Shown: positions 247-44,500 of the stretch, piece by piece
How positions within the stretch are numbered: position 1 is the stretch's first letter
Layout: every line of letters starts with the position of its first letter
Assembly: GCA_017415025.1 (NCBI GenBank)
Contig: JAFQJH010000016.1
Span: 1-64,000 of the forward strand
Source: Clostridia bacterium
Lineage (GTDB): Bacteria > Bacillota > Clostridia > Oscillospirales > Acutalibacteraceae
Reading direction: 5' to 3'
Length of the DNA: 64,000 bases
The notes under the pieces: generated by a model
Database searches by the model: none
The model's input: only the letters and a program-made list of their open reading frames with translations
Told to the model about the DNA's origin: nothing
Translations under genes and position numbers: made by a program

Positions 247-352
247 TTTTGCGAAGCAAAAATATCACATCGGCAAAGCCGATATTTCATATTGCGCAAG
301 CAATATTTCACCTGACCGAAGGTCAGATTTCACTGCAACGCGTGAGCGTTGC
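247..352. repeat. Mini-hairpin array upstream of tRNA-Ala
   Basis: Five consecutive perfect short hairpins are visible: TTTTGC/GCAAAA (247-261), ATCGGC/GCCGAT (269-283), ATTGC/GCAAT (291-304), CTGACC/GGTCAG (312-326) and GCAACGC/GCGTTGC (335-352). The stems are unrelated in sequence, but the spacers keep a common theme of ATATCAC or ATTTCAC. The array ends 5 bp before the tRNA gene. Function unknown. Confidence 0.75.
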
Positions 353-28403: not shown

Positions 28404-28744
28404 AAAAGGAGAGCACGAAGCGTGGGTGTCCAGAGGACACTCACGCAGTTTTATTCGCCTTGCGGCGAGTGATATTGCTTCGCAGTTATATAATGCTACG
28501 CATTGTGTTATTGTCCTTCGGACAGTTTTATGCGAATAAAATAACACTGAAATCGAAGATTTCAATATCACTATGCCGAAAAGTGCATAATATCACTCTT
28601 TCCGAAGGAAAGAATATCACTTAAAGTTAAAAGCGCACTTACTCACCACTTTTAGTGACAGTGCAAAAAAGTAAGAGTTAATGCAGTTTTTGCTACATTA
28701 ACTCTTTTTGTACTTTAGAGTACGACTCGGAAGCTCTCCTTTTT
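28403..28744. repeat. Large structured intergenic element with mini-hairpin array
   Basis: A 340-bp non-coding stretch enclosed by a perfect 12-bp inverted repeat, AAAAAGGAGAGC (28403-28414) and GCTCTCCTTTTT (28733-28744). Inside are many small hairpins with unrelated stems: CGTGGGTGTCC/GGACACTCACG, TCGCC/GGCGA, AATGC/GCATT, TGTCC/GGACA, TGAAATC/GATTTCA and TCTTTCC/GGAAAGA. The left half uses spacers like GTGATATT or GTGTTATT and the right half uses their complement, AATATCAC or AATAACAC. The whole can therefore fold as one branched structure. Function unknown; it separates two convergent genes. Confidence 0.8.
28674..28709 (+). terminator. Terminator-like hairpin within the element
   Basis: 10-bp stem AGAGTTAATG/CATTAACTCT followed by TTTTT. 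It probably ends ksgA transcription; the A-rich left flank may let it act on the other strand too. Confidence 0.8.
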
Positions 28745-34191: not shown

Positions 34192-35082
34192 ATGACAGGC
34201 TTCATTTTTCTTGACAAACCCGAGGGTATAACTTCATTCACGGCGGTCAACAAAACGCGCCGTATCCTCGGCATAAAAAAAGCGGGACACACGGGAACTC
34301 TTGACCCGATGGCGACGGGCGTTCTGCCGATAATGCTCGGCGGTGTAACGCGATTTTCACAGTATCTTCCCGTGTACGATAAAGCCTACCGCGCAAAAAT
34401 TCTGCTCGGTACGGTCACGGATACCCTCGATACAACGGGCGAAATCCTCGAAAAAAGGGAAGTAAATGTCACTTCGGACGAGCTGTGCTCTGCCGTGATG
34501 TCCTTTGTCGGCCGGATCAAACAGCTTCCGCCGATGTATTCCGCGGTGTCAAAGGACGGCGTTCGCCTTTATAAGCTGGCGCGTCAGGGAATCGAAATTG
34601 AGCGTGAGGCACGTGACGTTACAATTCACTCAATCGAAATCGTCTCCGACCTTGAAAATAACGAGTTTGAAATCGACGTTTCCTGCTCGGCAGGTACATA
34701 CATCCGTTCGCTCGCGGCAGATATCGGTGAAAAGCTTGGTTGCGGCGCAACGATTGCAGCCCTTCGCAGAACAAACGCAAACGGCATTGACATCTCGCGA
34801 ACCGTAACCCTTGAGGAGCTCGAAAAGGCTGTTGCCGAAGGTAGGGCGGAGGAGCTGATTTCTCCCTGCGACGAGATGCTTTCCGCGTATCCCGCGGTTA
34901 CTGTCAGTGAAAAGCAAGCGTTTTATTTCTCAAACGGCGGTGCGCTCGACCTTGTGCGCGTACGCGATAAGCAGACTGTCGGAATCTGCAGGGTCAAATC
35001 ACCCGACGGAAAGCTCGCAGGTTTGGGCAGAATTGACAGGGAAGCAGGTACTCTTGCGGTCGAAAAAATCCTCGTTTATTGA
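34192..35082 (+). CDS. truB: tRNA pseudouridine-55 synthase TruB
   Basis: A 296-residue TruB. It isomerises U55 in the T loop of tRNAs. The opening GFIFLDKPEGITS and the catalytic motif HTGTLDPMATGVL (Asp38) are diagnostic, and the C-terminal PUA-like domain is present. AAGGGGG precedes the ATG, with its own promoter at 34138-34166. Unlike in many bacteria it does not sit next to rbfA, infB or ribF here. A terminator follows at 35123-35150. Confidence 0.96.
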   Translation: MTGFIFLDKPEGITSFTAVNKTRRILGIKKAGHTGTLDPMATGVLPIMLGGVTRFSQYLPVYDKAYRAKILLGTVTDTLDTTGEILEKREVNVTSDELCSAVMSFVGRIKQLPPMYSAVSKDGVRLYKLARQGIEIEREARDVTIHSIEIVSDLENNEFEIDVSCSAGTYIRSLAADIGEKLGCGATIAALRRTNANGIDISRTVTLEELEKAVAEGRAEELISPCDEMLSAYPAVTVSEKQAFYFSNGGALDLVRVRDKQTVGICRVKSPDGKLAGLGRIDREAGTLAVEKILVY

Positions 35083-35122
35083 GCAAAATCCGTATACATT
35101 TTATATATAATAAAACACGCTG

Positions 35123-35150
35123 AATCGGCATAGTGGTCACTGTGCCGATT
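35123..35150 (+). terminator. Terminator of truB
   Basis: Stem AATCGGCA/TGCCGATT plus inner AGTG/CACT, followed by TTT. Confidence 0.88.
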
Positions 35151-35289
35151 TTTGTCATTTTTTCGACAAAAAAGCAGATGTGTTGAATAACTGAAAAACG
35201 CGAAAATACTGTCAATATTTCAACTCGTAAAAAATAGATATCAAATACTGTGAAATATGTACAAAATCAAAATATTACTTGAAAATTTA

Positions 35290-35318
35290 TTGACTTTGAC
35301 CGCAGAATGGTTTATATT
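35290..35318 (+). promoter_or_regulatory. Promoter of the structured RNA / surface-protein operon
   Basis: TTGACT (35290-35295), 17-bp spacer, TATATT (35313-35318). Transcription should start near 35325, about 290 nt before the first start codon. Confidence 0.8.
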
Positions 35319-35324
35319 TAAACT

Positions 35325-35587
35325 AACCATAAGAGTGGTGTCATTAGGGTTAGTGTGCCCTGATGTCAGCAACGCTATGCTGTGACACCCGTCTGGTTTA
35401 AATTCGCGTCGTATTGACGTGGTAATCGCGACCATCGGCACGAGCCGGGCACGCTGCTAAGGCGGGAAGGCTTAGGTGGCGGACGGCGGTTCGATTCGAA
35501 AGGGGAGGTTACTCAACGTAATAATGTCGCATCAGCGGTGCACAGCTGACTAAAAGCGTGCAAAACCTATACTATATTATATAGTAT
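35325..35587 (+). ncRNA. Candidate structured RNA (leader or stand-alone ncRNA), class unassigned
   Basis: GC-rich non-coding stretch in an AT-rich intergenic region, starting just after a good promoter. Pairings seen: GGTGTCA (35337) with TGACACC (35383), enclosing AGGG/CCCT and CAGCA/TGCTG hairpins as a three-way junction; TCGCG (35404) with CGCGA (35427); GAGCCG (35442) with CGGTTC (35487), enclosing CTAAG/CTTAG; AGGTT (35506) with AACCT (35564), enclosing TCAGC/GCTGA; and a final ATACTATA/TATAGTAT hairpin (35569-35587) before the Shine-Dalgarno. It matches none of the common riboswitches I can recall. The raiA-type RNA of Firmicutes is one class worth comparing. Confidence 0.6.
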
Positions 35588-35614
35588 CAAATTTTAACGG
35601 AGGTGCAATCCAAA

Positions 35615-38600
35615 ATGAGTAATGCAAAAAGATTTCTGAGTGTTATTCTTGCAATCGTAATGATGTGCTCAACACTCGTAATCGGTGCAAACGCTGCATA
35701 CGTCGCTTATAAGGATTCCGCTATCGAAGAGTACGACGCTCTTGATAAGGCAATTCTTACAACTGAGCAGTATGCAACTGCAGCAATGGATGAGCTTGAC
35801 CGTATGCTCAATAAAGAGCAGCTCAAGTTCACAAAGGAAGACATCATCGTCGGTGATATCGACCTTACATCCGTTGACGCAGCATTCGACTCTGTCGACA
35901 CCATCATCGACGGTGCTCTCTTCTCATCATTGAAGGGTATGCTCGGCGACCTTCAGTACTTGAATGCAGATGCATTTGAGACTCCTGATAACGGCGGTGT
36001 TCGTAGAGACACACCGGGCAAGACTGATCTTGACATGTTCTACAAGGTTTTCCAGTTCTTGCACGACAACACTGACCTTCTCGTTTCTTTCGTAGAAGGC
36101 GAGCTCGACCCGGGTTCAATCCTTGGTTCACTCATCGACCTCAGCGAGTTTATGGACGTTAACAAGCTCCTTAAGGGTCTCCTTTATGAGTTTGCTTACG
36201 GCGTTGAGGGTACAGACGAGCAGGTTGTTGCTTCTTCTGTTGACACAATGGCTCAGGACCTCATCGACAAGTATGTAGTTGACGGCTACACAGATGAAGA
36301 CGGCGTTTTCGTTGAGCCCCTTGTTCCTGCCCTCGAGGGTATGACAAACATCTCAACAGGCACAACCTACAACTTCCTTGACAGCGTTATTAAGGTTCTC
36401 TACAATGAGCTTCTCGTTCCCATCATTAACGAGGATCTCGGCGAGACAATCAAAAAGCTCTGTGGCGTTGAGTACATCGCTAACGGTGACGGCACATACA
36501 CACTTGACTATTCAAACCTCAATGAGTATGCAAGCCTTCTTAACGTTGATTATGAAGTTCCTGTTTATGAATTTACATCTGATACATTCATCTCACAGGG
36601 TAACAACATCATCAAGTCAATCTTTGATGCAATCATCAATCCCGATGTAATGGTATGGCAGGCTGGCGATAAGACAGCTTTCAAGGATAACCTTGTTAAT
36701 GTTGCAAAGCAGCTTCTTATTAACGCAGGTGACGAGCTCTTCGCAGATTACATCGAGCTTGCAACAGAGGAAGAGATCGAAGCTATGACAGCAGAGCAGC
36801 TTGTAGTTTATGCAGTTCGCGCTATCATCAACAGCTCATCCTTCGGTATGTATGTTCCTGAGACAGCAACAATCCGCGAGTTCGCATTTGTTGCTCTTCA
36901 GCAGGTTCTTGCAACTGACGTTCCTGAGCTTGATTTCTCAGACCTCGATCCGACAAGCACAGACTCTCTTGTAATTATGGGTATCGACTATGCTATCTAT
37001 GCTGTAAGCTCAGAGATCGATATGGGCCTTGAGTATGTTTACACAATGGACGGCGTTGAGGCTCAGCTCAAGAAGGCAATGGACTATGCAGTTGATAACT
37101 ATTCAGGTGTTCTTAACGGAATCACATTCAGCGAGACAGCATCTGCTTGGGATAACCTCAACACATTGCTCTTCTCAATCATTCCTGCAAACTGGCTTCC
37201 GGCTTCTGCAAACAACGATTTCAAGACCTTCCTCTTTGGTCTTATCGATAACATTGCAGATCTCAACTTCGAATACATTTTCGAGATGTTCGAGTATCGT
37301 TCAGATTCAGAGCTTCAGAAGACTCCGAAGCAGGTTGTCATCAATCTTGTAACTCGCGTTGTTAACATCATCTTCCCGGGTGCTTTCAAGGCAGCTACAA
37401 CTCTTGATGCTCTTGTTACAAATCAGGCACTTGCAGGTACAGTAAGAGCTATCTTCGATGCTCTCTGGAACTACAAGGCAAACCTTGCAAAGGTTGCTCT
37501 TCCGATTGTATGTAGCATCCTTGATCTTACAAACGCTCAGGAATTCGAATTCCCCGAGCTTACTTGGGACCCGACAGACGCAAACGTTGACGGTAACTCA
37601 ATCCGTACTGCAGGTTCAGTTGCTGTTAAGCTTATGGTTCGTAACGGTTCAACAGGTATCAACACAGGTTATACAGATGCTAACGGTGTATTCCACCAGG
37701 ATCAGCTCTATACCTACGATATCAAGTCAGTTACATCTAACGTTTCAGCTCTTACTATTACATACCCCGACACAATCGCCGGTGGTCAGACAGTTGAAAT
37801 GTCATTCTCAGGTGCTGTTTCAGCATCAACTCCGCTCGTTGTTACAATGACTTATGACGTTCTTACTGAGGACGGCTCACCGCTTACAGAGGAGCCCATC
37901 ACTGAGACAATCTATTCATACATCGCTTACAACGAGTCTCCCGACGATACAACAAAGCTTACTTCAACAGCAGTTGGTGGTTTCTCAATCACAGACGGTC
38001 CTCGTTACCTCTATGCTAACAGCTTTGGTGACCTCGAGGATATCGAGATTACAATTCAGAACACAAACGCAACTGCTGCAACAGTAGTTCCTTACTACAC
38101 ACTCACCGGTACTGCATCTGCAAACAACTTCAATGTAGGTCAGGACGGATTTAACGGTACTCAGTATCTCCAGACTCGTACTGAAGAAACTTCAATTATG
38201 CAGCAGGTTGAAGATGCTCCCGGTATCGCAAACATCAAGATCTTTGAAACAACAGAAGCTTACAATGCTCTTACTGATGAAGAAAGAGAAGCTCTCTGGG
38301 ATTCAATGATCGCTAAGGGTACAATCACTAACCCGAGAACAGGTGCTATTTCTCGTTACCCGAGAACACAGTACACAGTTGGTGCTACAATCAACGGTTC
38401 AACAAAGGTTCAGAACACAGGTGCTCTTGTATTCCTTTATAAGGACTACGGTCTTCCCGGAATCCTTGAATCAGAAATGAACAAGCACCGTCAGGCATCA
38501 GCTTATGCAACAGCTGATTCAACAGTATTCTCCGGCTTAACAGTTTGGGAAGCTTACGGCCAGGCTATGGAAGCTGCTGCAAAGGCAGTTTACAGCTGTT

Positions 38601-39664
38601 TCCGTAACACAACATTCGCAACACCGACAGGTAAGTTCAGCTTCTATGAGCCCGCTTACAATAACCTTGTAGCAGCTATCGAAGAGCTTGATGCACAGGT
38701 TCTTTCAGCAGGTGTTGCTTCTTCACAGGAACTCATTGATAAGTGCTATCCGTCAAATCCGGAAGGTCTCGCTTACTATGATCCTGCTTACATCCATCAG
38801 GGTGTTTCGGACTATGTTCCTTACACATACTACAACTTCCGCGACGAGTTGAACGCTCTTGAAGATATGATCTACTGGGCAACAACTCCGGACGAAGAGG
38901 GTAACGTAGCTGTTGTCAACGAGCTTGACAAGACATACAAGGAGCACAGATTCTCACTCTACTTCGGCAGACTTCTTAAGGTTGACAACGTTGTTAAGAC
39001 TCACCTTCAGAGAGAAGTTGACAACCCGTCACGTGAAATCGGTGCAGAAGCAGATTATTCACCCGAGTCATGGAACAACTATCAGATAGCTCTTAACTTT
39101 GCTATCTCAACTCTTAACGATGCTGAAGCTAACCCGACAAAGGTTAAGGCAGCATATCGTAACCTCCTTGAGGAAGAGAAGAGACTTGTTCCTGCAGGTG
39201 AAGGCGGCGGCGACATCGGCGGCGACGTATCTTACGTTCCCGCAGAGAATACTGAAATCTTTGCAACTGAAGATGGTTCAAAGGTTATCACAGGCTTTGC
39301 TCCTGAATCTGATTTTGCTGAATACTTCGAGTGCACAGGCTGCTATGTAGAAGTTACAGCAAACTCTCAGGATGTATATTCAACAGGTTCTGTTGTTAAA
39401 ATCATCAACGAAGCAACAGGTGATGTTATTGATACATTCACAGTTGCAGTATTCGCAGATTTGACAGGTGACGGTATGACGGACACAGGTGAGCTCGGCG
39501 TTGTTCTTGAAATCACAGGTGGTTCAATCGTTGCTGATGAGCTTCAGACAATCGTTGGTGATACCAACTTTGACGAAGTTATCGATACAGCTGAAATCAA
39601 CAGCTACCTCGAAGTAGCAGCAGGTTCAGTTGTTGTTGACTACGAAGCACGTGTAATCGCATAA
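35615..39664 (+). CDS. Large secreted surface protein with dockerin-like C terminus
   Basis: A 1349-residue exported protein with a signal peptide ending near GANAA. Residues 20-650 are a helical, acidic region unlike any domain I know. Residues 660-780 look like an immunoglobulin-type beta sandwich. A FIVAR-like three-helix unit (SPESWNNYQIALNFAISTLN) follows near residue 1155. The C terminus has a small beta domain and a dockerin-like pair (FADLTGDGMTDTGEL and GDTNFDEVIDTAEI). No enzyme motif is seen. GGAGGTG precedes ATG 35615; an in-frame GTG at 35603 overlaps that site and is rejected. First gene of a three-gene surface cluster. Strongly biased codons suggest high expression. Confidence 0.78.
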   Translation: MSNAKRFLSVILAIVMMCSTLVIGANAAYVAYKDSAIEEYDALDKAILTTEQYATAAMDELDRMLNKEQLKFTKEDIIVGDIDLTSVDAAFDSVDTIIDGALFSSLKGMLGDLQYLNADAFETPDNGGVRRDTPGKTDLDMFYKVFQFLHDNTDLLVSFVEGELDPGSILGSLIDLSEFMDVNKLLKGLLYEFAYGVEGTDEQVVASSVDTMAQDLIDKYVVDGYTDEDGVFVEPLVPALEGMTNISTGTTYNFLDSVIKVLYNELLVPIINEDLGETIKKLCGVEYIANGDGTYTLDYSNLNEYASLLNVDYEVPVYEFTSDTFISQGNNIIKSIFDAIINPDVMVWQAGDKTAFKDNLVNVAKQLLINAGDELFADYIELATEEEIEAMTAEQLVVYAVRAIINSSSFGMYVPETATIREFAFVALQQVLATDVPELDFSDLDPTSTDSLVIMGIDYAIYAVSSEIDMGLEYVYTMDGVEAQLKKAMDYAVDNYSGVLNGITFSETASAWDNLNTLLFSIIPANWLPASANNDFKTFLFGLIDNIADLNFEYIFEMFEYRSDSELQKTPKQVVINLVTRVVNIIFPGAFKAATTLDALVTNQALAGTVRAIFDALWNYKANLAKVALPIVCSILDLTNAQEFEFPELTWDPTDANVDGNSIRTAGSVAVKLMVRNGSTGINTGYTDANGVFHQDQLYTYDIKSVTSNVSALTITYPDTIAGGQTVEMSFSGAVSASTPLVVTMTYDVLTEDGSPLTEEPITETIYSYIAYNESPDDTTKLTSTAVGGFSITDGPRYLYANSFGDLEDIEITIQNTNATAATVVPYYTLTGTASANNFNVGQDGFNGTQYLQTRTEETSIMQQVEDAPGIANIKIFETTEAYNALTDEEREALWDSMIAKGTITNPRTGAISRYPRTQYTVGATINGSTKVQNTGALVFLYKDYGLPGILESEMNKHRQASAYATADSTVFSGLTVWEAYGQAMEAAAKAVYSCFRNTTFATPTGKFSFYEPAYNNLVAAIEELDAQVLSAGVASSQELIDKCYPSNPEGLAYYDPAYIHQGVSDYVPYTYYNFRDELNALEDMIYWATTPDEEGNVAVVNELDKTYKEHRFSLYFGRLLKVDNVVKTHLQREVDNPSREIGAEADYSPESWNNYQIALNFAISTLNDAEANPTKVKAAYRNLLEEEKRLVPAGEGGGDIGGDVSYVPAENTEIFATEDGSKVITGFAPESDFAEYFECTGCYVEVTANSQDVYSTGSVVKIINEATGDVIDTFTVAVFADLTGDGMTDTGELGVVLEITGGSIVADELQTIVGDTNFDEVIDTAEINSYLEVAAGSVVVDYEARVIA

Positions 39665-39694
39665 GATTATATCTTTTCTAAAACAAATATTTGT

Positions 39695-39720
39695 CCGACG
39701 GAGGCGAAAGCCTCTGTCGG
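39695..39720 (+). other. Stable hairpin between surface-protein genes
   Basis: 11-bp stem CCGACGGAGGC/GCCTCTGTCGG closed by a GAAA tetraloop, with no T run after it. It is more likely an mRNA processing or stability element than a terminator. Confidence 0.6.
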
Positions 39721-39785
39721 GTAAAACGGCGAGAGGTCAGCTCTTGTGCCGTGTATATCAATCAGACGAACAGGAGGAATAAAAA

Positions 39786-40862
39786 GTGAAAATTTCAAAG
39801 AAAATTCTTACTATTCTTCTTGCTGTAACTCTTGCTCTTTCCGTCTTTGCTGTCAGCGCATCAGCCGCAGGCACACCGACAGGAACAGAGGCAATGACAG
39901 TGACTATTACAACGGATAACGAAACCTACGAGGCTGAGGCTACTGTTCAGGTTCGTGTTACAATTTCAAGTAACTATAATGTTCCGTCCTTCCGTTTCCC
40001 GATTATGTTCGATGCTGAAGTTTATGAGCTTCCCGTCATTATCGGTCTTAAGTCTTACAATACCTGCGCTGAAGCCGGTACTGTAAACTACAATACAGTA
40101 GATACAGCCCAGTTTATTCCTGAAGCTTATGACCCGTCAGCCTTTGGTTGCGTTCTCTTTCAATGGACAGCATCCGTAGTTAACGGTGAGGTAGGCAGCA
40201 TCAATAACGAGGCTGGCGAGCTCGCTTTCACATTCGAGCTCAAAACAAAGTCATCTGCAGTCGGCAAGACCGGCACAATCTTCATTCCTGAGGAGTCAGA
40301 TCTCTTCTACTATCAGGCAATCGAAAATCCCGCAGATGCAACTTCTTTCTATTACCTTGATGCAACAACCTGCGCAATGTCATTTGTTCCTGCAAATGCT
40401 ATGGTCGTAGGTGAGCAGGTCGCTCTTGTTCCTAACGAAGATTTCGGTACACCCGCAATTATCGACGAGGAAAACCGTCGTATCTACGGTCTTAAAACAG
40501 ATATTTTGGGTAACTCTGAAATTAAGGAATTTGTTAAAGCAACAGGTAATGCAGTCATCCGTTCAACAGGCACGGAGTATGGTTACGGTACAGGTACCGT
40601 TGTTTCTCTTAACATCGATGCTGTCCCCGTAAAGAGTTATACTCTCATTGTCTTCGGTGATATTGATGGTGACTCGCTTAGTGACAATAACGACTTGACA
40701 TACGTTATCAGTTATTCTGCAGGTGACATTGTTTGCGAAGACGCAAATATTATATTTGCAGGTGACCTTACAAACGATGGCACAATTGACATCGGTGATT
40801 TGCCGGTTTACCTTGAAATCACAAGTGGTTCAGTTGTTATTGACCAATCTAATCCATACTAA
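39786..40862 (+). CDS. Secreted cohesin-like and dockerin-like protein
   Basis: A 358-residue exported protein starting at GTG 39786 behind a perfect AGGAGG. After the signal peptide, residues 35-205 form a beta-rich domain resembling cohesins (EATVQVRVTISSNYNVPSFR). A small beta domain (RRIYGLKTDILGNSEIKEF) leads into a dockerin-like pair, FGDIDGDSLSDNNDL and AGDLTNDGTIDIGDL. The last two modules are shared with the C terminus of the preceding gene. A protein holding both partner types could cross-link surface proteins. Cohesin identity is by pattern, not proven. Confidence 0.72.
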   Translation: MKISKKILTILLAVTLALSVFAVSASAAGTPTGTEAMTVTITTDNETYEAEATVQVRVTISSNYNVPSFRFPIMFDAEVYELPVIIGLKSYNTCAEAGTVNYNTVDTAQFIPEAYDPSAFGCVLFQWTASVVNGEVGSINNEAGELAFTFELKTKSSAVGKTGTIFIPEESDLFYYQAIENPADATSFYYLDATTCAMSFVPANAMVVGEQVALVPNEDFGTPAIIDEENRRIYGLKTDILGNSEIKEFVKATGNAVIRSTGTEYGYGTGTVVSLNIDAVPVKSYTLIVFGDIDGDSLSDNNDLTYVISYSAGDIVCEDANIIFAGDLTNDGTIDIGDLPVYLEITSGSVVIDQSNPY

Positions 40863-40915: not shown

Positions 40916-43900
40916 ATGAAACTCGCAAAAAAAGTTTTGAGTGTCGTTCTTGCTCTTGCAATCGCACTCGGCGCTTTCGCAGTTGCAGCTTCAGCTAACG
41001 GTAGCCCTGATGCAGATTATCAGGTTAAAATGTGGCTTACCGGTTCCGTTGGTACCGCTACATGGGCAACAGCTTCGAGAGTAACAATTGATGAAGGCGA
41101 TGAATCAGAGCCCGGTGCAACTATTGAAGTACAGCCCGGTGACACAGTTTTTGTTCGTGTTTACGTAACAAACAACTATATGGTTCATACAATTCAGGCA
41201 AACCTTTTCTATTCAAAGGATCTTATCGATGCAGCTGAAGAGTTTACAGCTCAGAAAAGCGCAACAATTAAACCGGCAGCTCTTAAGAAGATTCACCTCT
41301 GGAATGAGGACAACTATTGGGTAGGTCTTCAGGGTAACTCTTATTCAGCTCAGAATGCTTGGTCACTTCAGGATCCTACATTCAATGCTGACGTTGCTCA
41401 GAACTGGCCGACAGATGACGCTGGTAACAACCTCTTCAAAATTGATGAGTGGAAGTTTAACCGTTTCAACAACCTTGTAACATCAGGTGTTGGTGAAACT
41501 TGTATGTTTGACGATCCTGATAACAGCATTATTATGATGCCTGTTAAGGTTCCTGCAAATGCAGCACCCGGTTCAACATACTATGTAACAATTCCCGAAG
41601 GTCTTGAGCAGCGTTCAACAAAGACACAGGGTGCTCTCAGACTTTATGAGAATGGTGTTTGTGCAGACTGTGGCGAAGGCGGAGAGCCTTGTGAATTGGT
41701 TGACTCCCAGGCAGCTCTTAATCCGAATATGAAATATTCTGATGATAACCAGTACTGGGATCTTTCCGAGGCAACTCTTACTCTCCAGATCCCCGGCGCA
41801 TCAGAGCCCGAAGTAAACTACGACGAGCTTAATGCAAAGCTTACAGAAGCAGCTAACCTCCTCGCAGCAGGTAACCTTACAGCTGATTCTATAGCAACTC
41901 TTAACGCAGCTATCACAGCTGGTAACTCAGCTCTTACAGCTGAAGATCAGGAAACAGTTAATACAGCAGTTGAGACTCTTACAGCAGCTATCGCAGCAGC
42001 TAAGAACCTTGCAAACTTTGAGGCTCTTAACGCAGCTCTTGCAGAGTATGCAACTCTTAATGCTGAAGATTGGACAGACACTTCTTGGGCAGACGTAGCA
42101 GCAGCTTATGCAACAGCAGCAGCTATCGATCAGACTAACGAAGCTGATCAGGATAAGGTTGATGCAGCAGCTAACGACCTTGCAACAGCAATCGACAACC
42201 TTGTTCCCGCTCTCGTTTACACAGCTCTTGAAGCTAAGTACAACGAAGTTAAGGACACAGATACTTCTATCTACACAGATGCAACAGCAGGCGCATTCAA
42301 CTCAGCTCTTGCAGTAGCAAAGAACCTTGTTGAAAACAAGAACGCAGCTGATCAGAACGAAATTGACACAGCTCTTAATGACCTTACAACAACATTCGGC
42401 GCTCTTGCAGAGAAGGATGCTAACTACGAAGCACTCACAGCAGCTAAGGATCGCTTCACAGCTCTTAACGCTAAGGAGTGGACAGTAGCTTCTTACAACG
42501 CAGCTAAGGATGCTTATGACGCAGCTTGCGAAGTTCCCGCTGATCTTAAGATTTCACAGCAGGCTACAATCGACAACGCAGCTAACGAGCTCAACGCAAA
42601 GATTGACGCTCTTGTTCCCGCTGGCGCAGCTAGCTACACAGCACTTGACGAAGCTATCGCAGCAGCTAAGGCTCTCGTAGCTGATCATTATGTAGATTTC
42701 TCAGGCGTTACAGCAGCTCTTGCAACAGCAGAGAACGTTGACCGTAACCTCACATCTAACGATCAGGCTATCGTTGACGAGGCTACAAACGCTCTTGTAG
42801 CAGCTATGGGCGCTCTTGTTCCCGCAGATGCTGACTATTCAGCAGTAGAGCTTGCTAAGACAGCAGCAGCAGCTAAGGTTGCTGAAAATGACGAAGGCAC
42901 ACTTCGTTACACAGACGCTTCTATTGACGCTATCAACGATGCAGTAGCAGCAGTTGTTGAAGGTCTCAAGAAGGCTGATCAGGAAACAGTTGACGGTTAT
43001 GCAGCAGCTATCAATGCAGCTATTGAAGCAGCTGAGTACAGACCGTACGACTATTCAGCAATCGAAGAAAAGATTGCTCTCTTCGAAACATACAACAGAG
43101 ACGATTATAAGTATGACACTTATGATGCAGTAGCAGCAGCTATCGAAGCTCTCGTTTGGGGTTACACACATGAGCAGTATGGTCTTGCAAAGGTTCAGGA
43201 GAACAAGTTCAACACAACTTGGAACGCTCTTGCACTTGCTGATGCAGCTAACTACGACGATGTAAACCTTGCTATCGACGAGTACGAAGCTAAGATCGCA
43301 GCAGCTGACTACGAGCAGGATGGCATCGATGCAGTTGACGCTATCATCGAAGCTATTGATTGGCAGCTCAACGAGAACAAGCAGGATGTAGTTGACGGTT
43401 ATGCAGCAGCTATCCGCGAGGCTACAGACGCTCTTGTAGAAGTTGTTTATGAGCTTGTTGACTACACAAGACTTGACGCAGCTATCAAGGCAGCTAAGGA
43501 AGTTAACGCTGACCTTTACACAGGCGCTTCTTACAACGAAGTTACAACAGCTCTCTACACAGCTGAGTCAATCAGCCGTGACCTCCTTAAGGAAGAGCAG
43601 CAGGATTTCGTAGACGAAGTTGCTAAGACTCTTGAAGATGCTATCGCAGCTCTTGAGCTCAAGGCTAACTATGCAGATCTCGACGCAGCTATCCTTCGTG
43701 CAGGCACTTATGACAAGAACGTATGGACTGACACAACATGGGCAGTTGTAGAAGAGAAGCTCGCAGCAGCTAACGATGTTGACAGAGAGCTTGGCGAAAC
43801 ACAGCAGGATATCATCGACGAGGCAGCAGCAGCTCTTAATAAGGCTCTTGATGATCTCGTAGCTAAGGAAGTTGTTTCCAGCATCTCAACAATCAATTGG

Positions 43901-44500
43901 ACTCCGTCAGAGGACACTCATAACACATTCACAGTTGCTGTAACCGGCAGAATGGCTATGATCCAGTTCATCGAAATGGACGGCGGTACAAGAACTTACG
44001 ACAGATACAACAAGAATGTTAAAATCGTTAGCTACAATGCAGCTGGCGAAGAGGTTAACTCACTCAGCCGTGACGTTGCTTATGAGGTATGGACAATCGA
44101 TACAAACCTCATCGGTCCTGACGTAAAGGCTCGTGCTAAGTATCTCGAAGGTAACTCATACAAGTGGGAGACAGAGACATACGACTTCACAGTTGAAACT
44201 CTTGAACCCGTAATTGATGCAGACGTTCGTTCAATCACACCCGCAGCTACAGCTGGCAAGAAGGGCGCAGTTGCTACAACAGTAGTAGTTGGTCCTGACG
44301 CACAGGGTATCAGATTCGTAATGAGCAACGACACAACAACAACTTACTATGCTGATAAGGCTACTGTTCTTGATAACGGCGACCTTCAGTTCGTAGGTAA
44401 TGCTTGGGCAAACGACGCTGGTCTTAACACAATCATTGTTAAGGTACGCGTTAACAATGTTTGGGTAGAGGCTGGTACAGTAGAGTACACAGTTGAATAA
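40916..44500 (+). CDS. Secreted surface protein with about ten FIVAR repeats
   Basis: A 1194-residue exported protein. After the signal peptide (ends near VAASA) comes a cohesin-like beta domain (VQPGDTVFVRVYVTNNYMVH, residues about 75-290). From residue 302 to about 984 there are some ten three-helix FIVAR-type repeats of 65-80 residues, each opening with a Y/F-x-x-L/V motif (YDELNAKL, FEALNAAL, YTALEAKY, YTALDEAI, YADLDAAI) and many closing with LVP or similar. The last 200 residues are two beta domains. No sortase signal or dockerin is seen. Alanine is very common, nearly always coded GCA or GCT. Likely a long adhesive or structural stalk. Confidence 0.78.
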   Translation: MKLAKKVLSVVLALAIALGAFAVAASANGSPDADYQVKMWLTGSVGTATWATASRVTIDEGDESEPGATIEVQPGDTVFVRVYVTNNYMVHTIQANLFYSKDLIDAAEEFTAQKSATIKPAALKKIHLWNEDNYWVGLQGNSYSAQNAWSLQDPTFNADVAQNWPTDDAGNNLFKIDEWKFNRFNNLVTSGVGETCMFDDPDNSIIMMPVKVPANAAPGSTYYVTIPEGLEQRSTKTQGALRLYENGVCADCGEGGEPCELVDSQAALNPNMKYSDDNQYWDLSEATLTLQIPGASEPEVNYDELNAKLTEAANLLAAGNLTADSIATLNAAITAGNSALTAEDQETVNTAVETLTAAIAAAKNLANFEALNAALAEYATLNAEDWTDTSWADVAAAYATAAAIDQTNEADQDKVDAAANDLATAIDNLVPALVYTALEAKYNEVKDTDTSIYTDATAGAFNSALAVAKNLVENKNAADQNEIDTALNDLTTTFGALAEKDANYEALTAAKDRFTALNAKEWTVASYNAAKDAYDAACEVPADLKISQQATIDNAANELNAKIDALVPAGAASYTALDEAIAAAKALVADHYVDFSGVTAALATAENVDRNLTSNDQAIVDEATNALVAAMGALVPADADYSAVELAKTAAAAKVAENDEGTLRYTDASIDAINDAVAAVVEGLKKADQETVDGYAAAINAAIEAAEYRPYDYSAIEEKIALFETYNRDDYKYDTYDAVAAAIEALVWGYTHEQYGLAKVQENKFNTTWNALALADAANYDDVNLAIDEYEAKIAAADYEQDGIDAVDAIIEAIDWQLNENKQDVVDGYAAAIREATDALVEVVYELVDYTRLDAAIKAAKEVNADLYTGASYNEVTTALYTAESISRDLLKEEQQDFVDEVAKTLEDAIAALELKANYADLDAAILRAGTYDKNVWTDTTWAVVEEKLAAANDVDRELGETQQDIIDEAAAALNKALDDLVAKEVVSSISTINWTPSEDTHNTFTVAVTGRMAMIQFIEMDGGTRTYDRYNKNVKIVSYNAAGEEVNSLSRDVAYEVWTIDTNLIGPDVKARAKYLEGNSYKWETETYDFTVETLEPVIDADVRSITPAATAGKKGAVATTVVVGPDAQGIRFVMSNDTTTTYYADKATVLDNGDLQFVGNAWANDAGLNTIIVKVRVNNVWVEAGTVEYTVE

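What the first reader, a model, noticed from the sequence alone, without database searches (positions are those of the whole stretch)
35325..35587. Large structured RNA of unknown class ahead of the surface-protein operon
A consensus promoter starts a 290-nt untranslated region holding at least seven separate complementary stems (a three-way junction at 35337-35389, a long internal-loop hairpin at 35442-35492, a closed domain at 35506-35568 and an AT-rich hairpin next to the Shine-Dalgarno). GC content rises sharply against flanking DNA. It fits none of the common riboswitch consensus patterns I know. It may be a new cis-regulator of surface proteins, or a stand-alone RNA such as a raiA-type member.
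Basis: partly seen in the sequence, partly recalled or inferred. Interest (0 to 1): 0.78.

Follow-up and report, generated by a model that had tools for sequence, protein, structure and literature searches.

The report
Pseudoknotted leader of surface-protein mRNA
A long folded RNA region at the start of the message for a large secreted protein in uncultured gut Clostridia keeps its shape, including a knot-like fold, while its letters change between species; it matches no catalogued RNA family and probably protects the message or helps it be translated.

Summary
Window 35323-35614 is the 5' leader of the gene at 35615-39664 (1,349-aa secreted protein, unknown domain), behind a TTGACT-17-TATATT promoter. 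It folds better than shuffles (z -4.0) and matches no Rfam 15 family, raiA included. Homologous leaders precede the orthologous gene in other genera of the same unnamed Clostridia family; I analysed 75. First feature: a sequence-conserved core at the transcription start (consensus UAACCAUAAGAGUGGUGUnAUGGGGnnnAGUGUGCCC), one match in each of 20 family genomes, in 19 directly upstream of this gene. Its helices change sequence but stay paired (31 distinct S2 strand sequences; swapped tails pair as well in 73 of 1,464 trials). It is clear in g1, g98 and g87, in the one g58 leader and 1 of 4 g102 leaders; 1 of 9 in g19; none of 12 in g15, g16, g49, g122. Single-column covariation in the genus was not significant; helix-level tests were. 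No conserved terminator or small ORF was found. Favoured, unproven mechanism: a structured leader that stabilises, and helps translation of, a highly expressed surface-protein mRNA. A ligand- or protein-sensing switch is not excluded.

The parts
35290..35318 (+). Promoter TTGACT-17-TATATT
   Evidence: same kind of element before homologous leaders
35323..35614 (+). Whole 5' leader (start at about 35323-35325, inferred from the -10 and from where conservation begins) up to the start codon
35324..35365 (+). Sequence-conserved 5' core UAACCAUAAGAGUGGUGUCAUUAGGGUUAGUGUGCCCUGAUG
35325..35329 (+). P1 5' strand AACCA, pairs with 35394-35398 UGGUU
   Evidence: four of five pairs invariant in 11 genus sequences, the innermost kept in 9 (uninformative); weak statistics
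35394..35398 (+). P1 3' strand UGGUU
35337..35343 (+). P2 5' strand GGUGUCA, closes the three-way junction
   Evidence: six different complementary P2 versions in 13 genus leaders; 40 of 806 foreign partners pair as well; L012, L057 and L058 individually weak
35383..35389 (+). P2 3' strand UGACACC
35342..35365 (+). P3 hairpin CAUUAGGG/CCCUGAUG (its first two bases overlap P2)
   Evidence: 93% paired cells, reached by 2 of 400 tree-simulated alignments; pair types 5 of 400; two-sided changes 49 of 400
35367..35382 (+). P4 hairpin CAGC/GCUG, third arm of the junction (absent or replaced in some relatives)
   Evidence: sequence; not tested statistically
35457..35475 (+). Hairpin CUAAG[GCGGGAAGG]CUUAG with conserved 9-nt loop
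   Evidence: loop: paired cells 95%, reached by 10 of 400; two-sided changes 45 of 400 and pair types 142 of 400, not significant
35504..35509 (+). SD-like GGAGGU inside the leader, 95 nt before the true SD, no conserved ORF
   Evidence: significant in 3 of 13 genus leaders only, but 5 of 6 (g16) and 7 of 9 (g19)
35532..35536 (+). Pseudoknot S1 5' strand UCAGC
35539..35543 (+). Pseudoknot S2 5' strand UGCAC
35545..35549 (+). Pseudoknot S1 3' strand GCUGA
35550..35557 (+). Pseudoknot loop L3 CUAAAAGC, A-rich
   Evidence: L3 55% A over 40 leaders, 31% A in the surrounding 130 nt
35558..35562 (+). Pseudoknot S2 3' strand GUGCA
35569..35587 (+). A+T-rich hairpin AUACUAUA/UAUAGUAU next to the ribosome-binding site
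   Evidence: similar hairpins by eye in relatives
35599..35604 (+). Shine-Dalgarno GGAGGU
35615..39664 (+). 1,349-aa secreted protein, signal-peptide-like N-terminus; weak FIVAR match at 1128-1188 (below Pfam's cut-off)
   Evidence: effective codon number 35.3, third lowest of 38 ORFs
35122..35151 (+). Terminator-like hairpin after truB, upstream of the leader's promoter

Best explanation
It is the structured 5' leader of one mRNA, lineage-specific and single-copy, that serves strong expression of a large secreted surface protein. Shown here by comparison: the location, the conserved core at the transcription start, the closing helix of the 5' junction in the window's genus, and the H-type pseudoknot kept in shape but not in sequence. 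Inferred: the folded 5' end and the compact pseudoknot slow 5'-to-3' decay (an RNase J-like gene is present in this genome) and leave the ribosome-binding site in an A+U-rich stretch, so that the message is long-lived and well translated. The conserved core may add a binding site for a protein or a small molecule.
For: 20 of 398 family genomes have a core match, one each; in 19 it lies 200-400 bases upstream of the orthologous gene (one search read; many of these sequences trained the model). Canonical pseudoknot at p<=0.05 against shuffles in g1 11 of 13, g98 23 of 28, g87 5 of 8 (L065 borderline), g58 1 of 1, g102 1 of 4; 31 distinct S2 and 26 distinct S1 strand sequences among the 40 best, some differing only in length; in the genus alignment S1 and S2 measures reached by 0 of 400 tree-simulated alignments (that region was aligned by hand to the structure). 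In g87 S1 stays UGCCGG/CCGGCG while S2 changes on both sides (L064, L174, L175, L176). Because the pseudoknot keeps no sequence except an A-rich loop, it looks like a structural part rather than a ligand pocket. High expression: near-consensus promoter and strong codon bias. RNase J-like gene over cut-off (the model is named MG423, its link to RNase J is recalled). A different, viral pseudoknot-ring RNA blocks purified RNase J1 (PMC5760640, passages read), so the principle is possible.
Against: No expression, half-life or probing data. Genera g15, g16, g49 and g122 keep a related core but show no such pseudoknot (0 of 2, 0 of 6, 0 of 3, 0 of 1), g19 only 1 of 9, g102 1 of 4. A looser finder scored 21 of 45 leaders, but also 13 of 52 upstream regions of related genes without the core, at p<=0.05, so that shuffle null is too easy or those genes have pseudoknots of their own; the stricter finder was not run on those controls. 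No single column pair was significant in an R-scape-like test on 11 genus sequences (best E 4.9). SD accessibility is no better than in control genes (0.34 against 0.33). Strong sequence conservation of the core is more than a mere stabiliser needs.
Confidence: 0.47

Rival explanations
1. A sensing leader (orphan riboswitch or protein-binding leader): the conserved core and three-way junction bind a metabolite or protein; alternative pairing of AACCA with the near UGGU or the far UGGUU transmits the state to translation or decay.
For: The core is the best conserved part over several genera; a junction with conserved letters; two mutually exclusive partners for AACCA in the genus.
Against: One copy per genome before a single gene of unknown, non-metabolic type in the family genomes searched; no conserved terminator (8 of 75 leaders have a terminator-like site, at scattered positions); no special SD masking (a crude test); far pairing P1 statistically weak (132 of 806 foreign partners pair as well).
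Confidence: 0.24
2. The conserved core is a DNA operator: a regulator binds ACCA-N6-TGGT just downstream of the start site; the rest of the leader is secondary.
For: Core begins at the start site and contains ACCA..TGGT as an inverted repeat.
Against: The gap between the half-sites varies (6 in g1, 5 in L103, L104, L107 and L115 of g16) and half-sites change in a hairpin-compatible way (AACCGUAAGGUU in L133); conservation runs on into the GGG..CCC hairpin; RNA helices of the genus show helix-level covariation.
Confidence: 0.14
3. A stand-alone RNA (raiA/ModT-like) that happens to lie before the gene.
For: Long, G+C-rich, highly structured, own promoter.
Against: No terminator in this leader; in the analysed set about 190-410 nt before the same gene (the set was chosen by that); no raiA match in the window or held genome; no match outside the family better than chance in 394 genomes of the order.
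Confidence: 0.06
4. Stab-SD leader: the internal GGAGGU binds 30S subunits and blocks 5' decay, as in cry3Aa.
For: AAGGAGGU-like element without a conserved ORF in g16 (5 of 6) and g19 (7 of 9), genera mostly lacking the pseudoknot; also L133 (g58) and 1 of 3 in g49; GGAGGU at 35504 in the window.
Against: Significant in only 3 of 13 leaders of the window's genus, 0 of 28 in g98 and 0 of 8 in g87.
Confidence: 0.08

Closest known systems
raiA motif / ModT RNA (Rfam RF03072)
   Same: Large structured RNA in Clostridia with pseudoknots (PMC11706538: passages read).
   Different: No sequence or structure match; here a leader tied to one gene, in one unnamed family, with no terminator in the window's copy.
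Structured stabilising 5' leaders of abundant surface or secreted proteins (aprE leader stem-loop; S-layer gene leaders)
   Same: Long structured leader, strong promoter and strong SD before a secreted protein. The aprE work was seen only as a reference title in PMC3997798; S-layer leaders are recalled, two searches found no paper.
   Different: An H-type pseudoknot with helix-level covariation is the central element here; stabilisation not shown; sequences not compared.
STAB-SD (cry3Aa-type) leaders
   Same: SD-like element far upstream of the gene in some genera; STAB-SD seen as a reference title in PMC3997798 and in a search listing.
   Different: Not conserved in the window's genus.
H-type pseudoknot elements (preQ1-I, SAM-II riboswitches, xrRNA pseudoknots; geometry of these recalled)
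   Same: Two interleaved stems, short L1 (1-2 nt in 35 of 40), L2 of 0-1 nt in 39 of 40, A-rich L3.
   Different: No conserved ligand-contact letters; SD not part of the knot; no Rfam match.

Membership tests
raiA motif (RF03072) | Covariance-model match at the gathering score | tested here: not met
   window; held genome, E up to 10
raiA motif (RF03072) | Wide spread in Bacillota and Actinomycetota, high abundance | tested here: not met
   core only in one family at better than chance, within 394 genomes of one order and 398 of the family; other orders not searched; abundance not testable
Riboswitch (any Rfam class) | Match to a described class | tested here: not met
Riboswitch (any) | Ligand binding | not testable with these tools
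   needs probing
Riboswitch (any) | Expression platform: conserved terminator or SD-masking stem | tested here: inconclusive
   terminator-like sites in 8 of 75 leaders at scattered places; SD accessibility as in controls, 38 leaders and 47 controls, a crude test without pseudoknots
H-type pseudoknot RNA | Two interleaved helices kept by compensatory change | tested here: met
   for g1, g98, g87 (plus L133, L070); not found in g15, g16, g49, g122; single-column test not significant
STAB-SD leader | Conserved SD-like element in the leader without ORF | tested here: not met
   g1 3 of 13, g98 0 of 28, g87 0 of 8; met in g16 5 of 6, g19 7 of 9
mRNA-stabilising leader | Lengthens mRNA half-life | not testable with these tools
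   experiment needed
Leader-peptide attenuator | Conserved short ORF over the structured part | tested here: not met
   AUG UCG.. frame (MSHQRCTAD) only in part of the genus, read by eye; start codons just after the best internal SD-like site are absent or inconsistent in the 75 leaders

The most novel reading that the evidence does not exclude
A new RNA class of gut Clostridia: a start-site aptamer-like core plus a sequence-free H-type pseudoknot that works as a bacterial 5'-to-3' exonuclease roadblock (a bacterial counterpart of xrRNA), setting the dosage of the cell's main surface protein, perhaps in response to a signal read by the core.
Probability: 0.17. Interest if true: 0.85.

Novelty: new variant of a known kind. 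Interest (0 to 1): 0.56.

Why it matters
Structured leaders that set surface-protein dosage are little known outside model species (recalled). This one has good comparative evidence, fixed anatomy and an obvious test (break S2, restore it with the partner change, measure half-life and output). It would add a family to Rfam-type catalogues, and a pseudoknot that keeps geometry but no sequence is a good candidate for a mechanical role in bacterial mRNA decay.

Tried and rejected
Rfam at permissive thresholds: seven hits, all chance-level and outside the leader. Phage records: no match. A 19-nt core pattern with 2 mismatches hit 21 of 398 family genomes, but the reversed control pattern hit 26 by my count of the listing; after reading contexts only the g1, g15 and g98 hits were kept. 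Two viral contigs with the exact pattern show no leader-like surroundings by eye. Column covariation on 11 genus sequences: no significant pair, best E 4.9. MAFFT does not line up the pseudoknot helices over genera, so alignment-free and swap tests were used. A first swap test with a loose finder was weaker (33 of 364 between genera; 45 of 130 within the genus). Leader-peptide and Stab-SD ideas: not supported for this genus. Attenuation: no conserved terminator. One search used a wrong core offset for L056 and L057; repeated for the genus. Over all genera P2 stood out only in g1 and the single g58 leader; g98 798 of 1,316 and g87 263 of 536 foreign partners did as well. Protein function: for the three surface proteins nothing over a cut-off in Pfam or NCBIfam; the best PDB sequence match of the first had E 0.049. 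Structure prediction was never accepted, the machine being busy.

Rows dropped: of 90 upstream regions of protein matches, 38 were taken as leaders by promoter and core, partly by eye, and 52 used as controls; weaker matches were not fetched. Of 33 new ones were kept; L159, L167 and L177 dropped (L159 shows a core-like start by eye). Two g98 matches (G421, G438) came without loci. Five of 18 genus genomes (G300, G301, G309, G312, G313) gave no significant DNA match and were not searched with the protein.

Full report
What is there. The gene at 35615-39664 codes for a 1,349-aa protein with a signal-peptide-like start and no Pfam or NCBIfam domain over cut-off; a weak FIVAR match lies near its end. 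Two further secreted proteins follow (39786-40862, 40916-44500), and the same three-gene order is found in L004, 'Clostridia bacterium isolate RGIG150', dairy-cattle cecum. Upstream lie truB and a terminator-like hairpin (35122-35151), then a TTGACT-17-TATATT promoter at 35290-35318. From there to the start codon is a leader of about 290 nt. Its G+C is 0.54 (35323-35568), against 0.29 before it and 0.26 just after it. It folds with -98.8 kcal/mol, z -3.98 against 200 shuffles; the opposite strand gives z -1.55.

Known families. The whole window at gathering scores gave two tRNAs and two Gut-1 RNAs, nothing in the leader. The region 35080-35700 at E up to 10 gave seven chance-level hits, all outside the leader. 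raiA is absent from the held genome (the genome is 84% complete).

Homologues. A DNA search of the 18 genomes of the genus found the leader in 11 at E below 1e-3; the protein search added G177 and G305, 13 of 18 in all. A profile of the N-terminal 380 aa (A1) matched 87 of 398 family genomes in 29 of 135 genera. Of 90 upstream regions read, 38 were taken as leaders: a near-consensus promoter about 210-385 nt before the gene with a related start-site core. Searches in genera g98, g87 and g19 gave 30 more of 33 new ones. With seven further g1 leaders the set is 75: g98 28, g1 13, g19 9, g87 8, g16 6, g102 4, g49 3, g15 2, g122 1, g58 1. The set was chosen partly by eye.

Core. Over 33 cores from g1, g15, g16, g58, g87 and g98 the consensus is UAACCAUAAGAGUGGUGUnAUGGGGnnnAGUGUGCCCUUUU. 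A sequence model of it (R1) found 20 of 398 family genomes at E<=0.02, one match each. Nineteen lie directly upstream of the orthologous gene (positions compared); the twentieth, G237, is weak (E 0.018) and was not examined. Many of these trained the model, and large searches use stricter filters that lose weak matches. In 394 genomes of the order 17 matched at E<=0.05: the seven strong ones (E<=8.8e-6) are all in this family, and the other ten (E 0.004-0.044) are fewer than the about 20 expected by chance. So in what was searched the element is restricted to one family, single-copy and tied to one gene; other orders were not searched.

Pseudoknot. Seen by eye, then tested with a finder of fixed geometry (S1 and S2 of at least 4 and 5 pairs, L1 1-4, L2 0-2, L3 3-13 nt, ending 20-62 nt before the SD), scored against 100 dinucleotide shuffles of each leader: p<=0.05 in g1 11 of 13, g98 23 of 28, g87 5 of 8 (one, L065, borderline), g58 1 of 1, g102 1 of 4, g19 1 of 9, and none of 12 in g15, g16, g49 and g122; 42 of 75 in all. 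In g1, g98, g87, g58 and L070, 40 of 51 leaders score -18 or better, with 31 distinct S2 and 26 distinct S1 strand sequences, some of them differing only in length. Joining each leader's front to another's tail gives as good a knot in 73 of 1,464 cases; L3 is 55% A against 31% in the surrounding region. In g87 four leaders share S1 (UGCCGG/CCGGCG) while S2 is GUGCGUG/CGCGCAU, UUGCGCA/UGCGCAG, UAUGCGC/GCGCAUA and GCGUGCG/CGCACGC. In the window's genus (11 aligned sequences) the paired cells, two-sided changes and pair types of S1 and S2 were each reached by 0 of 400 tree-simulated alignments; the pseudoknot region was aligned by hand to the structure, which favours it.

Against this: column-by-column covariation on the same 11 sequences gives no significant pair (best E 4.9). 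A looser finder gave 21 of 45 leaders, but also 13 of 52 upstream regions of related genes without the core, at p<=0.05. Some of the latter look like pseudoknots of a second leader type, but this was not settled, and the stricter finder was not run on them. A first, looser swap test was weaker (33 of 364 between genera, 45 of 130 within the genus).

5' domain. In the genus, the closing helix P2 of the three-way junction occurs in six complementary versions (GGUGUCAU/GUGACACC, GAGUGGUGU/ACACCGCUU, GAGUGGU/GCCGCUC, AGUGGUGU/GCACUGCU, AGAGUGGUAUC/GGUAUCGCUUU, UGGUGUA/UACACCA). Foreign partners do as well in 40 of 806 cases, shuffled own partners in 159 of 2,600; the third to fifth versions are individually weak (21, 54 and 24 of 200 shuffles). 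The window's own MFE does not contain P2; those of L008-L011 do. P3 is supported by paired cells (2 of 400) and pair types (5 of 400), not by two-sided changes (49 of 400). The far pairing P1 (AACCA/UGGUU) hardly varies and is weakly supported (132 of 806; 543 of 2,600). Outside the genus P2 is not generally supported. The hairpin at 35457-35475 carries a 9-nt loop GCGGGAAGG, unchanged in 10 of 11 aligned genus sequences, but it is not seen in G177 and G305.

How it may work. There is no conserved terminator (8 of 75 scattered sites), no unusual SD masking (38 leaders 0.34, 47 controls 0.33), no conserved ORF, and one target gene. The gene's codon usage is among the most biased of the window (35.3, third of 38 ORFs of at least 200 aa, some of which may not be genes) and the promoter is near consensus, so high expression is likely. 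An RNase J-like gene is encoded. A stabilising and translation-supporting leader fits best; the role of the pseudoknot as a block to 5'-to-3' decay is inference by analogy with a viral pseudoknot-ring RNA that stops RNase J1 in vitro (PMC5760640, passages read). The strongly conserved core leaves room for a sensing role.

Literature. Seven text searches of the held library listed no paper that by title or abstract start describes such a leader; most subscription papers are not in that library, so this is weak evidence. Papers read only as passages: PMC3997798, PMC11706538, PMC5760640; the motif-discovery papers were seen only in the listing.

Noticed in passing
L116 (G000:C6:92014-93300, gene on the minus strand), about 140-195, and L117: A related secreted-protein gene of the same genome has a different short leader that can form another pseudoknot ([GUAUAAGCC]..<AGUGUAUUAG>..[GGCUUGUAU]..<CUGAUAUGCU>), with a changed but still paired version in L117: perhaps a second leader family.
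   Followed up: partly
L153, L130 and other g98 leaders: A long hairpin GAUACACAUCC..GGUAAU..CUCGGGUGUGUAUC is conserved in many g98 leaders; its loop could pair with the start-site core (UCCUnnGGU with ACCAUAGGA), and core variants (AACCAUAAGGA in L160, L163, L168) go with changed loops (UCCGAGUGGU).
   Followed up: partly
window 257-335 (-) and 28446-28516 (+): Two Gut-1 RNAs, a family listed in Rfam.
   Followed up: no
window 39660-39780: Between the first and second surface-protein genes lie a G+C-rich hairpin (CCGACGGAGGC/GCCUCUGUCGG) and a further inverted repeat, by eye.
   Followed up: no
L103, L104, L107, L110, L115 (g16); L071, L072, L078, L178-L180 (g19): Leaders of g16 and g19 have a strong SD-like AAGGAGG(U) (GGAGGU in L103) about 85-130 nt before the true SD and lack the pseudoknot; perhaps an alternative solution of the STAB-SD type.
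   Followed up: partly
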